NCBI GenBank assembly: GCA_026400755.1
Contig: JAPLOM010000063.1
Coordinates: 24,333 to 60,363 of the forward strand
Reading direction: 5' to 3'
Length of the DNA stretch: 36,031 bases
From: Alphaproteobacteria bacterium
Lineage (GTDB): Bacteria > Pseudomonadota > Alphaproteobacteria > CADEGL01
Below are positions 19,861 through 24,636 of this stretch, piece by piece. A program made the position numbers and the translations under genes. The notes beneath the pieces were generated by a model that saw nothing but the letters and a program-made list of their open reading frames with translations, had not been told where the DNA came from and made no database searches. Every line of letters begins with the position of its first letter. Positions within the stretch are counted from its first letter, which is position 1.

Positions 19861-19896
19861 AAAGGGCGCCACCCTCGGGTGGCGCCCTTTTTGTTT
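19861..19896. terminator. Bidirectional intrinsic terminator
   Basis: A perfect 14-bp stem, AAAGGGCGCCACCC against GGGTGGCGCCCTTT (19861-19874 and 19877-19890), encloses a two-base TC step, so in practice the loop opens by a few pairs. It is followed by TTGTTT. The A-run on the left arm makes a T-run on the other strand. It can therefore end both acuI (plus) and the M19-like gene (minus), whose stop codon lies at 19895-19897. Confidence 0.9.
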
Positions 19897-20923
19897 ATGC
19901 GCCCCAGATCTGGGCCAGGACGCGCATCAGGTTCTCGCCCAGAAGCCCGCGCACCTGGGTTTCGTTCCAGCCATGATTCAGAAGTGCCTCGGTCAGGCGC
20001 GGCAGCTCCTGCGGCGAGCCGCAATCGGAGAGATAGCGCGTGCGGATGTCGTTGCCGAACGCGTCGGCGTATTTCGAGATGGCACCGGGATAGCGGTTGA
20101 GCGTCATGGACGTGGTGGCGCTGACCTTGGCCAGGTCGGAGACGATGGGGAAGTCGGTGCCGAGCGACAGCTTCTCCGGCCCGATCAGGTTCGCGGCATG
20201 GTCCACATGGCGCAGGAAATCCTTGAGCGAGGGGCGGTCGTTGGATTTCCCGTCCCAGCACATGGGACCGTAGACGGAGACGCCCAACAGGCCGCCGGTC
20301 GCGCCCACGGCCTTGATGACGGCGTCGGTTTTGTTGCGCGCGGCCATGGCCACGGTCTTGGTGTTGGCGTGGGTCAGAAGCACCGGCTTCGACGAGGCGG
20401 CGGCTGCGTCCAGGCACGTGCGCTCGCCCACGTGGGAGAGATCGACCGCGATGCCGAGGCGGTTCATCTCCTCGACCGCGCGCTTGCCCATGGCGGACAG
20501 GCCGCCGTCATGCGGCTCAAGGCACCCGTCGCCCAGGAAGTTGCGCTCGTTGTAGGTGATCTGCATCACGCGCAGGCCCAGGCGATGGAAAAAGCCGAGG
20601 CGCTCCAACCGGTCGCCGATGGGGCGCATGTTCTGCCAGCCCATGATCAGGCCGACCTTGCCCTCCTTCTTGGCCTGGCGGATGTCGTCGGTCTTGAGCA
20701 CGAGGCGCCAGGGGCTGTCGGGCTTTTCCACCCGCACCAGCCAGTCGGCCACTTGGTCGGCCGCTTCGGCGAAGTCGGCGTGGAAGCGGGAGACGGTCAG
20801 GTTGATGGCCGAGACATTGCCCTGCTTCAGCGGCTCGATCGTGCCGTCGCAGGTAAAGATCAGCCCGTCGATGATGGTCGCATCCTTGTGCAGCGCGGCC
20901 GCTTGGGGCGAAACGGTGCTCAT
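19895..20923 (-). CDS. M19 (membrane dipeptidase) family protein lacking part of the metal site
   Basis: The 342-residue protein has the M19/renal dipeptidase TIM-barrel layout. I-I-D-G is near 17-20, M-Q-I-T-Y-N-E-R-N follows, then D-G-G-L-S-x-x-G and D-L-S-H-V with His164, L-T-H-A-N with His185 and L-G-T-D-F with Asp257. Canonical members have D-G-H-N-D after the first strand and a bridging Glu in G-V-E-G-G. Here these read D-G-L-I-F and G-W-Q-N, so two ligand sets are gone. I recall a subgroup of M19 proteins with the same changes, so this is probably a divergent enzyme rather than a decayed one. It lies 10 bases after the flavin monooxygenase gene with an AGGAGA site before its ATG, so the two are co-transcribed. 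Confidence 0.82.
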   Translation of the reverse strand: MSTVSPQAAALHKDATIIDGLIFTCDGTIEPLKQGNVSAINLTVSRFHADFAEAADQVADWLVRVEKPDSPWRLVLKTDDIRQAKKEGKVGLIMGWQNMRPIGDRLERLGFFHRLGLRVMQITYNERNFLGDGCLEPHDGGLSAMGKRAVEEMNRLGIAVDLSHVGERTCLDAAAASSKPVLLTHANTKTVAMAARNKTDAVIKAVGATGGLLGVSVYGPMCWDGKSNDRPSLKDFLRHVDHAANLIGPEKLSLGTDFPIVSDLAKVSATTSMTLNRYPGAISKYADAFGNDIRTRYLSDCGSPQELPRLTEALLNHGWNETQVRGLLGENLMRVLAQIWGA

Positions 20924-20933
20924 GGCGTCTCCT

Positions 20934-21950
20934 TCAGGCGAAGTGGGGCATGACGCGCGTGGCGAACAGCTCGAGCGAGCGCAGCACGTCGCGGTGGTTG
21001 GCGCCGAAATTCATGTTCATCTGCATGTTGTGGATGCCCAGTGCTTCATAGCGCTTGAGTTTCTCCACGCATTGCTCTGGCGTGCCGATGATCAACGCGT
21101 TCTCGACCTCGGCCTCGGTGACCTCGACGTCGATCGGCACGATGGCGCCGCCCTTGACCAGACCGGGTGTGTTGAAGACGCGCACGAAGCGGCGGTTGTT
21201 CTCCATGGCCAGCGCCAGCTTCTCCTCGGCATCCGCGCGGCTTTCGGTCACGTAGCACATGCGCAGCATGGACAGCTTCTGCTTGGCTGCCGCGGGGCCC
21301 ACCTCGGCCACGGCGTCCATGAACGACTTGGCTTGAGCCTGCGCCGCGCCGAAGGGATCGCGCAAGGGCGTGGTCATGACGTGATAGCCTTGCTTGACCG
21401 ACCAGTTGACGGCGCCGGGCGCCAGGGCCGCGATCCAGATCGGCGGATAAGGCTTGGTCATCGGGCGCGGCGTGATGGTCAGCGGGCCGAAATCGTACCA
21501 TTGGCTTTTCCAGACTACCTCTTCCTCGGTCAGGAGCTTCTTGAGGCAGGCCAGCGCGTCGCCGAAACGGTCGCGCGATTCGCTGACCGGCACGCGGAAA
21601 TGATCGAACTCATATTGGAATGCGCCGCGTCCCAGGCCCAGTTCGATGCGCCCGTCGGTCAGGCAATCGGCTTGGGCGATTTCGCCGGCCAGGCGGCGGA
21701 TGTCATAGAAGGGCAGCACCAGCACCGCCGTGATGATCGGGATGCGCTTGGTGACGGCGGCCACCTTCACCGCGGTCAGGAGCGGGCTCGGGTGCGTCAG
21801 ATAGTTGATGAAATGGTGCTCGGGGATCGAGACGGAGGTGAAGCCGACATCCTCGGCGAACTTCGCTTCCTCCACCGTCTCCCGATACATGTGCTGGGCC
21901 GGCAGCTTCACGTCGGGCCAATAGCACGGCAGGTAGAACCCGAAATCCAT
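20934..21950 (-). CDS. Luciferase-like (LLM class) flavin-dependent monooxygenase
   Basis: The 338-residue TIM-barrel protein begins MDFGFYLPCYW. It contains the LLM core S-I-P-E-H-H-F-I-N-Y, the A-E-I-A-Q-A-D-C-L-T-D-G-R-I-E-L-G-L-G-R-G block, P-Y-P-P-I-W-I-A-A, and the C-terminal I-I-G-T-P-E-Q-C-V-E-K-L-K. Such enzymes use reduced FMN, supplied by a separate reductase, and oxygen to oxidise or cleave organic substrates. I chose the ATG at 21950, which has GGAGA six bases upstream, over an earlier ATG at 21977 that would overlap the operator. No flavin reductase gene is seen in the window. It is downstream of the MocR gene and its putative operators. Confidence 0.9.
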   Translation of the reverse strand: MDFGFYLPCYWPDVKLPAQHMYRETVEEAKFAEDVGFTSVSIPEHHFINYLTHPSPLLTAVKVAAVTKRIPIITAVLVLPFYDIRRLAGEIAQADCLTDGRIELGLGRGAFQYEFDHFRVPVSESRDRFGDALACLKKLLTEEEVVWKSQWYDFGPLTITPRPMTKPYPPIWIAALAPGAVNWSVKQGYHVMTTPLRDPFGAAQAQAKSFMDAVAEVGPAAAKQKLSMLRMCYVTESRADAEEKLALAMENNRRFVRVFNTPGLVKGGAIVPIDVEVTEAEVENALIIGTPEQCVEKLKRYEALGIHNMQMNMNFGANHRDVLRSLELFATRVMPHFA

Positions 21951-21977: not shown

Positions 21978-21993
21978 ATTGTATCAGTACAAT
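21978..21993. promoter_or_regulatory. Operator palindrome, copy 1
   Basis: ATTGTATCAGTACAAT is a 16-bp palindrome with arms ATTGTA/TACAAT around TCAG. It lies 28-43 bases upstream of the monooxygenase start. An exact reverse-complement copy lies at 22066-22081. It is AT-rich inside GC-rich DNA and adjacent to the MocR gene, fitting a GntR/MocR-type binding site. Confidence 0.75.
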
Positions 21994-22020
21994 TAATTCA
22001 CGTGCGGCTGATGGATGAGA

Positions 22021-22049
22021 CAATTCCCTGACGACGCATTCTCCGTCAA
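22021..22049 (-). promoter_or_regulatory. Possible promoter of the monooxygenase/M19 unit
   Basis: On the minus strand TTGACG (22044-22049) and GAATTG (22021-22026) are 17 bases apart, between the two operator copies. The -35 match is good, the -10 poor. This would put one operator upstream of the promoter (activator position) and one downstream of the start. Confidence 0.3.
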
Positions 22050-22065
22050 GGAAAACGCAACCCAT

Positions 22066-22081
22066 ATTGTACTGATACAAT
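22066..22081. promoter_or_regulatory. Operator palindrome, copy 2 (inverted)
   Basis: ATTGTACTGATACAAT is the exact reverse complement of copy 1, with centres 88 bases apart (about 8.4 helical turns). It ends only nine bases past the MocR stop codon. Confidence 0.75.
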
Positions 22082-22089
22082 TGAGAAAT

Positions 22090-23481
22090 TTAGAGACCGA
22101 CGTAGCCGGGCCGTGGCCGTGCGGACAGCGCTATGGCCAAGACTTCCAGGCCTTTCGCCAATTCCGTTTCGTCGCGCACGGCACCGCCCAGGCTGACGCG
22201 CACGGCGTGGGGCACGGGATCGTGCGCGGCGGCGAAGGCCTCGGCGGGGATCACGAGCGCGCCTTGCGCCCGCGTGTAGGACGCGAACTGCAGGCCGGTC
22301 CAGGCTTCGGGCAGAAGCAGCCAGAGATTGGGGCCCGCGACCTGGGCGCGGATCTTGGCCGAGGACAGAATCTTCGCGGCCAGGGCTTGGCGGCGTTTCA
22401 TCGCCGCGCGCTGGCGCAAGACAAGTTTCTCCGCGGTGCCGTCCTCGATCAATCCGGCCGCCAGTTCCGCGGTCAAGGGCGAGGTCATCCAACTGCTGGC
22501 GCCGAGCGCGGCCGACATGCGCGCAGCACCACCCGGCGGTGTCGCCAGATAGCCGATGCGCAAGGCGGGCACCACGCTCTTGGACAGAGCGGTGACGTAG
22601 TAACTGCGCTCGGGCGCGAAGCTGGCCAAAGGCGGCGGCGGATCAACCGCGTAGGGGCCATAGACGTCGTTCTCGATGATGGTCAGTCCGTGCTTGCGCG
22701 CGACCGCGGCCACGGCCCGGCGGCGCGCAGCGCTCATCATCGCGGTCGTGGGGATGTGATGGGTGGGCAGACAGAACAGGGCGCTGGGCCGCGCCTTGCG
22801 GCACGCTTCGTCCAGCGCGTCGGGGATCAGCCCTTGGTCGTCGATCGCCACGCCCTTCAGGTTCAGCCGGCGGCTGGCCGCGATGAACTTGATGCCGGGG
22901 TCGGTCATCGTCTCGGTCAGGACCGTGTCGCCCGGCTCCGTGATCGCGGACAGGATCGTGGCCGCGCCGTGCTGCGCGCCGCTGGTCACCACCACGTCCT
23001 CGGCTTTGGCCTTCAGGCCACGCGCCCGCAGCCATGCCGCGCCCGCTTCGCGATGACGCTCGAGGCCGAGCCACGGCGGCTGATAGGCGATCATCTCGCC
23101 GAGCTTCGGATGGTCCGAAAGCTTGCGCAGCCGTTGGGCCACCGCGCGCGCATGATGTTCGTCCAAAACGGGGCAGTTGAAGGCCAGGTCGATGGCCGCA
23201 CCCGCGCCGAAGCTGGTCCAGCCGACCGTGCTGACATCCTCGGCCCGGCGCGGCGTGTCGTGGCCCAAGACGAAGGTGCCGCGCCCGACCTGGCCCGCGA
23301 CCAGGCCGCGCCGTTGCGCCTCGGCATAGGCGCGGGTCACTGTCTGCACCGAAACGCCTAGCTCGCGCGCGAATGCGCGGTGGGTGGGTAGGCGTGCGCC
23401 GACGGCCAGGACGCCCGATTCGATATCGCGCGCGATGCGTTCGACGATCGCGAGGTAACGCCGGTCGCGTCCGCCCGCCAT
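22090..23481 (-). CDS. MocR-type PLP-dependent transcriptional regulator (GntR HTH + aminotransferase fold)
   Basis: The 463-residue protein has an N-terminal GntR winged helix, with A-R-L-P-T-H-R-A-F-A-R-E-L-G-V-S-V-Q-T-V-T-R-A-Y at about 29-52 and R-G-T-F-V, followed by a class I aminotransferase-fold domain. This domain includes V-T-S-G-A-Q-H-G, E-N-D-V-Y-G-P-Y and the PLP lysine Lys301 in T-A-L-S-K-S-V-V-P-A-L-R-I-G-Y. MocR regulators sense PLP or amino compounds. I use the ATG at 23481; a GTG is directly before it. No good ribosome-binding site is seen. It precedes the monooxygenase and M19 genes on the same strand and probably controls them through the paired palindromes. Confidence 0.93.
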   Translation of the reverse strand: MAGGRDRRYLAIVERIARDIESGVLAVGARLPTHRAFARELGVSVQTVTRAYAEAQRRGLVAGQVGRGTFVLGHDTPRRAEDVSTVGWTSFGAGAAIDLAFNCPVLDEHHARAVAQRLRKLSDHPKLGEMIAYQPPWLGLERHREAGAAWLRARGLKAKAEDVVVTSGAQHGAATILSAITEPGDTVLTETMTDPGIKFIAASRRLNLKGVAIDDQGLIPDALDEACRKARPSALFCLPTHHIPTTAMMSAARRRAVAAVARKHGLTIIENDVYGPYAVDPPPPLASFAPERSYYVTALSKSVVPALRIGYLATPPGGAARMSAALGASSWMTSPLTAELAAGLIEDGTAEKLVLRQRAAMKRRQALAAKILSSAKIRAQVAGPNLWLLLPEAWTGLQFASYTRAQGALVIPAEAFAAAHDPVPHAVRVSLGGAVRDETELAKGLEVLAIALSARPRPGYVGL

Positions 23482-23505
23482 CACGCGGCCCGAGTCATGG
23501 GCGGC

Positions 23506-24636
23506 TCAGCGCGCCGCCCGGCCCAGCGCCTTGCCGCGCGTGCGCTTGATCGCGGCGATGGCCGGCGCGGCGTGGCTTAGGTCATCGGGATAGAAGGCGA
23601 TCTCGTCCTTGAGCAGAGGGCCGGTGTTCAGGAACCCTTCCAAGGTCGCGTGCATGCACAGCGCGGCATAGGTCACCTGATAGCCGCCTTCCTGCACCGC
23701 GACCAGGCGTCCGCCGGTGTGCTTTTGGGCCAGCTTGCGCGCCTCGTCCGCCAGCGCGCGAAAGCCCGCCATGGTCACGAGCTGGCGGCCGTTGGGGTCG
23801 AACTGGTTCGCGTCCTGGCCGTTCGCGACCAGGATCACCTCCGGCTTGTAGGCGTTCACCGCCGGCACGACGATCTCGCGCATGGCCTTCAGATAACCCG
23901 AATCGCTGGTGCCCATCGGCAGCGGCACGTTCAGGTTGAAGCCCTTGCCGCGACCCTTGCCGACCTCGTTGGCCTTGCCGGTCTGCGGATGGAACTTGGG
24001 GTGCCAGGCGCCATGGTCCATGTGGAACGACACGGTCAGCACGTCGTTGCGATGGTAGAAGCCTTCCTGCGTGCCGTTGCCGTGATGGACGTCCCAATCC
24101 AGGATCGCGACGCGCTTGGCGCCGCGCTCGATGGCGCGCTGGGCGGCCAGCGCCGTGTTGTTGAGGAAGCAATAGCCGTCGGCCGTGTCGGGCGAGGCAT
24201 GGTGCCCCGGCGGACGCACCAGCGCATAGGTCAACTTGCCCTTGCCGTCCAGCATGTGGTCCATCGCCGCGATGGCGGTGCCCGCCGCGGCCTTCACGGG
24301 ACCATAGGATTTCGGCGTGAACAGAGTGGTGCGCGTGTACCACTTGCCGCGCCCCTTGCTCTTGGTCACCCGCTCCAGGTCGGCCAGGAAGCCCGGCGTG
24401 TGGAAGGTGAGAAGCTCGTCGCGCGTGGCTTGGCGGCCCTTGTGCCATTTGATCTGCTTGGCCAGGGGGCCGTCCTTCAGGATGGACAGCATGTTGCGCA
24501 CGCGATCCGGGCCTTCCGTATGCTTTTCGGCGACGGCCAGGAACGGGTAGGGCGGAATTTCGAAGGCCGCCATGCCCATGTCGTGCTTCAGCACGTCGGG
24601 ATGCCAGAACACATGCAAGGTCTCGGTCTTGGCCAT
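23506..24636 (-). CDS. Histone deacetylase-like / acetylpolyamine amidohydrolase family protein
   Basis: The 376-residue protein belongs to the arginase/deacetylase fold of class II HDAC-like enzymes. It shows R-P-P-G-H-H-A (His145-His146 as the catalytic pair), D-W-D-V-H-H-G-N-G-T with zinc ligands Asp182 and His184, and A-N-G-Q-D-A-N-Q-F-D-P for the third zinc ligand. A conserved G-G-Y near the end supplies the tyrosine. Bacterial members deacetylate acetylated polyamines, other small amides or lysine side chains. A strong AGGAGG-like site precedes the ATG. It sits between the MocR gene and the transporter genes on the same strand, which suggests a small-molecule amide as substrate, but that is inference. 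Confidence 0.9.
   Translation of the reverse strand: MAKTETLHVFWHPDVLKHDMGMAAFEIPPYPFLAVAEKHTEGPDRVRNMLSILKDGPLAKQIKWHKGRQATRDELLTFHTPGFLADLERVTKSKGRGKWYTRTTLFTPKSYGPVKAAAGTAIAAMDHMLDGKGKLTYALVRPPGHHASPDTADGYCFLNNTALAAQRAIERGAKRVAILDWDVHHGNGTQEGFYHRNDVLTVSFHMDHGAWHPKFHPQTGKANEVGKGRGKGFNLNVPLPMGTSDSGYLKAMREIVVPAVNAYKPEVILVANGQDANQFDPNGRQLVTMAGFRALADEARKLAQKHTGGRLVAVQEGGYQVTYAALCMHATLEGFLNTGPLLKDEIAFYPDDLSHAAPAIAAIKRTRGKALGRAAR

What the first reader, a model, noticed from the sequence alone, without database searches (positions are those of the whole stretch)
21978..22081. Perfect inverted pair of 16-bp palindromes upstream of the monooxygenase gene, beside a MocR gene
ATTGTATCAGTACAAT and its exact reverse complement ATTGTACTGATACAAT lie 88 bases apart, in 140 bases of AT-richer DNA between the MocR stop and the monooxygenase start. 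Each is itself palindromic. One lies near a potential -35 box, the other just before the start codon, which fits regulation by looping or by an activator/repressor switch. I count this as the most likely operator set of the window.
Basis: seen in the sequence. Interest (0 to 1): 0.65.

Follow-up and report, generated by a model that had tools for sequence, protein, structure and literature searches.

The report
Paired EnuR-type operators of a MocR regulator
Two near-palindromic DNA sites in front of a flavin monooxygenase gene are very probably the docking sites of the vitamin-B6-dependent switch protein encoded next door; they match the sites of a known ectoine-responsive switch, but here the switch appears to serve other genes.

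Summary
ATTGTATCAGTACAAT (21978-21993) and its exact reverse complement (22066-22081) lie in the 139-bp gap between a MocR gene and a luciferase-like monooxygenase (LLM) gene; by chance such a pair is negligible. Each has 6-bp palindromic arms around an asymmetric centre (TCAG/CTGA). Both match the published consensus of EnuR (EutR/EhuR), the MocR repressor of ectoine catabolism: ATTGT-N6-ACAAT. In R. pomeroyi the predicted EnuR sites also lie between the regulator's 3' end and its operon. The window's MocR scores just above the EhuR model cut-off, has the PLP lysine (K302) and an EnuR-like recognition-helix motif, and falls in a clade sister to EnuR rather than inside it. No ectoine genes are adjacent, and EutD/EutE cut-offs are not reached in the genome. 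A congeneric genome keeps MocR, LLM and both sites; another genus keeps HDAC-LLM-dipeptidase but lacks both MocR and sites. Best reading: EnuR-like operators through which this MocR controls (probably represses) LLM plus M19 dipeptidase until an unknown primary amine binds PLP. Looping is possible but untested. A new member of a known kind, of modest interest.

The parts
22066..22081 (-). Operator O1 (ATTGTATCAGTACAAT on the minus, coding strand), 8 bp after the MocR stop
   Evidence: 15 of 16 bases kept in congener
21978..21993 (-). Operator O2 (ATTGTACTGATACAAT on the minus strand), 27 bp before the LLM start codon
   Evidence: 16 of 16 bases kept in congener
22036..22058 (-). Conserved inverted repeat / possible RNA hairpin between O1 and O2 (core TTYTCC-TTGAC-GGAGAA, 22039-22055), containing TTGACG; role unknown
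   Evidence: kept in congener with two one-sided pair-keeping changes
22090..23484 (-). MocR-type regulator, EnuR-like (GntR wHTH plus aminotransferase-like domain, PLP Lys302)
20934..21950 (-). Luciferase-like flavin monooxygenase (LLM), presumed first controlled gene
   Evidence: Pfam Bac_luciferase
19895..20923 (-). M19 membrane-dipeptidase family gene, presumed second controlled gene
   Evidence: Pfam Peptidase_M19; a homologous gene follows the LLM also in G001 and G002
23506..24636 (-). Histone-deacetylase-family gene, 21 bp upstream of MocR and codirectional; may share a transcript with MocR
   Evidence: Pfam Hist_deacetyl; gap

Best explanation
O1 and O2 are the operators of the MocR protein encoded just upstream. 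A MocR dimer reads the ATTGTA/TACAAT arms with its GntR-type winged helix. Bound at O1 and O2, on either side of the presumed LLM promoter, it holds down transcription of the LLM-dipeptidase operon; O2, between the presumed start site and the start codon, would block polymerase or its passage. An amine-bearing metabolite forms an aldimine with PLP on Lys302 and releases or rearranges the protein. Shown: the sites, their conservation and co-absence with MocR, the EnuR-type consensus, the PLP-site residues, and the sister position to EnuR. Inferred: binding, repression, inducer, promoter position. The MocR gene has no such site upstream and probably is not autoregulated through it.
For: Exact fit to EnuR consensus ATTGT-N6-ACAAT and same placement between regulator 3' end and operon (PMC8739950 section 11). 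MocR scores 490.4 against a cut-off of 480 for the EhuR model. Tree of 41: window clade (with congener and two Aestuariivirga-type proteins, 100/97) sister to the EnuR clade (support 91/91); three of the seven EnuR-clade rows verified as ectoine-linked. SVQTV recognition-helix motif shared with EnuR-clade members (SVQTV/SVHTV/SIHTV), while most other rows have TVGTV; PLP Lys302 in 41 of 41 rows. Congener keeps 31 of 32 site bases against 75 of 107 alignment columns outside. G002 keeps HDAC-LLM (82%)-M19 but has no MocR ortholog and no site. No site-like sequence upstream of MocR (best 4 mismatches).
Against: No binding data. The conservation test rests on one congener, and 66 of 5886 pairs of 16-column stretches in the same gap are as conserved. 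The G002 comparison is one lineage and its genome is 95% complete. Aestuariivirga relatives (49% MocR) have only a weak site (2 mismatches, shuffle fraction about 0.12), and upstream of MocR rather than downstream. ATTGT-type palindromes also occur at MocR genes outside the EnuR clade, so the consensus alone does not single out EnuR-like readers. No promoter was recognised.
Confidence: 0.78

Rival explanations
1. DNA looping: MocR dimers on O1 and O2 meet and form a loop of about 88 bp around the promoter; the mirrored asymmetric centres set the orientation of the two complexes.
For: Two strong sites flank the presumed promoter; the mirrored centres TCAG/CTGA are identical in the congener; spacing is nearly kept, 88 and 87. 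For MocR proteins, widely spaced direct repeats have been proposed to go with DNA looping (PMC5320631 passage).
Against: 88 and 87 bp are 8.4 and 8.3 turns at 10.5 bp, not a whole number; the sites here are inverted palindromes, not direct repeats; two independent sites explain the anatomy equally; R. pomeroyi EnuR has two closely spaced sites.
Confidence: 0.25
2. MocR acts as an activator from O1, and O2 is a repressing site used without inducer (switch, GabR-like).
For: O1 lies upstream of the TTGACG block, where an activator could sit; PMC5924519 passages say some MocR/GabR regulators both repress and activate.
Against: The closest characterised relative, EnuR, acts as a repressor; O2 downstream of the presumed start suits repression.
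Confidence: 0.2
3. The sites belong to another transcription factor encoded elsewhere (for example another GntR-family protein), and the nearness of MocR is coincidental.
For: ATTGT/ACAAT-type palindromes also occur beside MocR genes of several other clades; binding not tested.
Against: In the own genome the only two sites with both 6-bp arms perfect lie here, next to MocR; sites and MocR are missing together in G002.
Confidence: 0.1
4. The inverted pair is a structural or mobile feature: terminal inverted repeats of a small insertion, or an RNA hairpin/terminator.
For: The pair could form a 17-bp stem; the gap folds better than shuffles, z -3.4.
Against: No other copy of the perfect-arm site in the genome; no terminator-like site; the one changed site base in the congener breaks the O1-O2 pairing and is not compensated; palindromes alone lower the fold energy.
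Confidence: 0.04

Closest known systems
EnuR / EutR / EhuR (ectoine nutrient utilization regulator, MocR/GabR subfamily of GntR)
   Same: Operator consensus ATTGT-N6-ACAAT; two sites between the regulator's 3' end and a codirectional operon (R. pomeroyi); GntR wHTH plus aminotransferase-like domain; PLP lysine at position 302; recognition-helix SVQTV/SVHTV
   Different: 36-41% identity to the EnuR-clade proteins used here; sister clade, not inside; sites 88 bp apart; adjacent genes are LLM and M19 dipeptidase, not ectoine genes; EutD/EutE cut-offs not reached in the genome
GabR of Bacillus subtilis
   Same: Same domain plan; PLP-based sensing; distant sequence match (4n0b)
   Different: Binds a different site with direct repeats (PMC5320631 passages); different regulon
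MocR-like proteins of Aestuariivirga sp. / Rhizobiales bacterium Y(2018) (L041, L042)
   Same: 49% identity, same clade; an LLM (41% identical), a RutF-like flavin reductase and a DoeA/PepQ-like peptidase lie within a few kb
   Different: LLM is not adjacent (a LysR-like gene, named by eye, lies between); only a weak site, upstream of the MocR gene

Membership tests
MocR subfamily of GntR regulators | N-terminal GntR winged helix fused to a fold-type-I aminotransferase-like domain | tested here: met
   Pfam GntR 10-72 and Aminotran_1_2 98-447, both above gathering score
MocR subfamily of GntR regulators | PLP-binding lysine and partner residues | tested here: met
   K302, D273, R429; K and R in 41 of 41 rows
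EnuR/EutR/EhuR | NCBIfam NF052286 above curated cut-off | tested here: met
   490.4 against 480 bits; weak test, since 27 of 385 genomes pass and several passing genes lie outside the EnuR clade of the tree
EnuR/EutR/EhuR | Placement inside the EnuR clade | tested here: not met
   Sister clade; EnuR clade 99/98 excludes it, joint node 91/91
EnuR/EutR/EhuR | Adjacent ectoine uptake/catabolism genes | tested here: not met
   Neighbours are HDAC-like, LLM, M19 dipeptidase; EutD best 557 of 613 bits, EutE best 298 of 403 bits, both on other contigs
EnuR/EutR/EhuR | Operator ATTGT-N6-ACAAT between regulator and operon | tested here: met
   Two exact sites; consensus from PMC8739950
EnuR/EutR/EhuR | Induction by alpha-ADABA / DABA | not testable with these tools
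   Needs ligand-binding assay
EnuR/EutR/EhuR | Represses its operon | not testable with these tools
   Needs genetics or in vitro transcription

The most novel reading that the evidence does not exclude
A regulator clade sister to EnuR kept EnuR's DNA code but was rewired to a flavin monooxygenase/dipeptidase pathway with a different amine inducer; the two mirrored, asymmetrically centred sites and the conserved hairpin between them form a looped or two-step switch.
Probability: 0.3. Interest if true: 0.45.

Novelty: new member of a known kind. Interest (0 to 1): 0.3.

Why it matters
It adds a MocR regulator with a clearly defined operator pair and a regulon not described in the papers seen here. 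DNA specificity appears conserved across the EnuR/sister-clade split while the controlled genes changed, which makes inducer evolution in MocR proteins testable. The substrate of the LLM-dipeptidase pair was not identified here; the inducer of this MocR would point to it.

Tried and rejected
RNA/terminator and mobile-element readings: no terminator-like site, no other perfect-arm copy in the genome, no compensating change in the congener. Third genomic site (C16, ATTGTATCAAGACAAT): I saw no MocR-like protein among the ORFs listed around it (by eye), and it is not among the congener's exact sites; taken as chance (about 0.25 expected). Palindrome search in Aestuariivirga gaps: no perfect 6-bp-arm palindrome in the MocR-transporter gap. 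Ectoine regulon in the own genome: EutD and EutE cut-offs not reached. Wider search for more close orthologs: the order search held only 5 genomes, the genome-contig scan gave 10 loci, the phylum search of 398 genomes gave only the window itself and one 42% protein at E<=1e-98. Literature searches for MocR with TACAAT, with luciferase-like monooxygenase, or with monooxygenase plus operator, and for EnuR/EutR with monooxygenase, found nothing on this regulon in the listings. No structure prediction was run.

Full report
What is there. On the minus strand the gene order is HDAC-family gene (23506-24636), MocR gene (22090-23484), a 139-bp gap, luciferase-like monooxygenase (LLM, start ATG at 21950), M19 dipeptidase (19895-20923). 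In the gap, O1 = ATTGTATCAGTACAAT (22066-22081) starts 8 bp after the MocR stop and O2 = ATTGTACTGATACAAT (21978-21993) ends 27 bp before the LLM start codon. They are exact reverse complements, extended to 17 nt, 72 nt between arms, 88 nt start to start. Each has perfect 6-bp arms; the central four bases (TCAG or CTGA) are not symmetric, so the pair is truly mirrored.

Chance. Up to 2 mismatches to ATTGTAN4TACAAT: 4 in the window against 0.05 in shuffles. In the 3.36-Mb own genome, ATTGTN6ACAAT occurs exactly three times, these two plus one on contig C16; the reversed-pattern control has none in any of 5 genomes. Base composition predicts about 0.25 per genome and 9e-6 in the gap.

What they match. 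[quoted passage not shown] pomeroyi. The window has the same arrangement, with different downstream genes. PMC5924519 (passages) describes EnuR as a repressor induced by N-alpha-ADABA and DABA through PLP on Lys302.

The regulator. The MocR protein scores 490.4 bits against the EhuR model, cut-off 480. That cut-off alone is not decisive: 27 of 385 class genomes pass it, including genes outside the EnuR clade of my tree. In a tree of 41 proteins the window protein groups with its congener and two Aestuariivirga-type proteins (100/97); this group is sister (91/91) to a clade of seven (99/98) that holds EnuR. I checked three of the seven as ectoine-linked: EutD, EutB and/or EhuA over cut-off in the cluster and EutE over cut-off in those three genomes. 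The other four were not checked by model (their TRAP label in the scripts was given by eye). Lys302, Asp273 and Arg429 of the PLP site are present, and the recognition-helix motif SVQTV is shared with EnuR-clade members (SVQTV, SVHTV or SIHTV), while most other rows read TVGTV. I infer similar DNA specificity and amine sensing.

Conservation. O2 is identical and O1 differs at its last base; spacing is 87. In the gap 31 of 32 site columns are identical against 75 of 107 others (Fisher p 7e-4), but 66 of 5886 pairs of 16-column stretches do as well; the conserved inverted repeat and the stretch before the start codon are also kept. G002, another genus of the family, keeps HDAC, LLM (82%) and M19 in order, has no close MocR (best E 7e-6; none at 1e-110) and no exact site in its genome, nor one with up to 2 mismatches in the 260 bases before its LLM gene. 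So MocR and sites come and go together, in the one lineage where this can be seen. Of 385 class genomes only 12 have an LLM at E<=1e-70; of the 18 LLM genes compared, only the window's and the congener's have sites upstream, and one (L101) had almost no upstream DNA to examine.

Placement in relatives. Over 41 MocR loci, a best site that at most 5% of shuffles reach lies within 200 bases upstream of the gene in 11 and downstream in 4 (about 2 expected each); the four downstream are the window, the congener and two EnuR-clade loci. In the EnuR clade 6 of 7 have a best downstream match with at most 2 mismatches, but only 2 of those 6 stand out from shuffles. Aestuariivirga has ATTGTACTGCGACATA upstream of MocR (2 mismatches, shuffle fraction about 0.12), which is weak.

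Mechanism. Committed reading: the MocR dimer binds O1 and O2 and represses LLM-M19; an amine forms an aldimine with PLP and relieves it. No site lies upstream of mocR (best 4 mismatches), and the HDAC gene ends 21 bp before mocR, so mocR may be expressed with HDAC and independently of this switch. Looping is possible, but 88 bp is 8.4 helical turns. No consensus promoter was found; the best candidate is the conserved CCTTGACGGAGAATG block.

Third element. Between the sites lies a conserved inverted repeat, TTYTCC-TTGAC-GGAGAA (22039-22055), which folds as a 9-bp hairpin (z -4.9); the congener keeps 8 pairs with two one-sided changes. With 0 mismatches it occurs only at this locus in G000 and G001 and not in G002; with 2 mismatches there is one further match each in G000 and G002. 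Its role is open.

Verdict. It works like EnuR; it is not filed as EnuR because clade placement and ectoine linkage were tested and not met.

Noticed in passing
22036-22058: Conserved inverted repeat/hairpin TTYTCC-TTGAC-GGAGAA between the two operators, kept in the congener with pair-keeping changes; could be a second regulator's site or an RNA element.
   Followed up: partly
own genome G000, contigs listed: 33 stretches match the EutD (M24 peptidase/ectoine hydrolase) model, none over its cut-off: a large set of such hydrolases for a 3.4-Mb genome.
   Followed up: no
L041 661-9978: In Aestuariivirga-type genomes the related MocR sits in a cluster with a polyamine-type ABC transporter, a DoeA/PepQ-like peptidase, a RutF-like flavin reductase and an LLM, hinting at an amine-containing substrate for this regulator clade.
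   Followed up: partly
L068 2965, L069 2956, L058 1432: Perfect ATTGT-N6-ACAAT sites lie upstream of MocR genes of other clades, so this operator type is broader than EnuR.
   Followed up: partly
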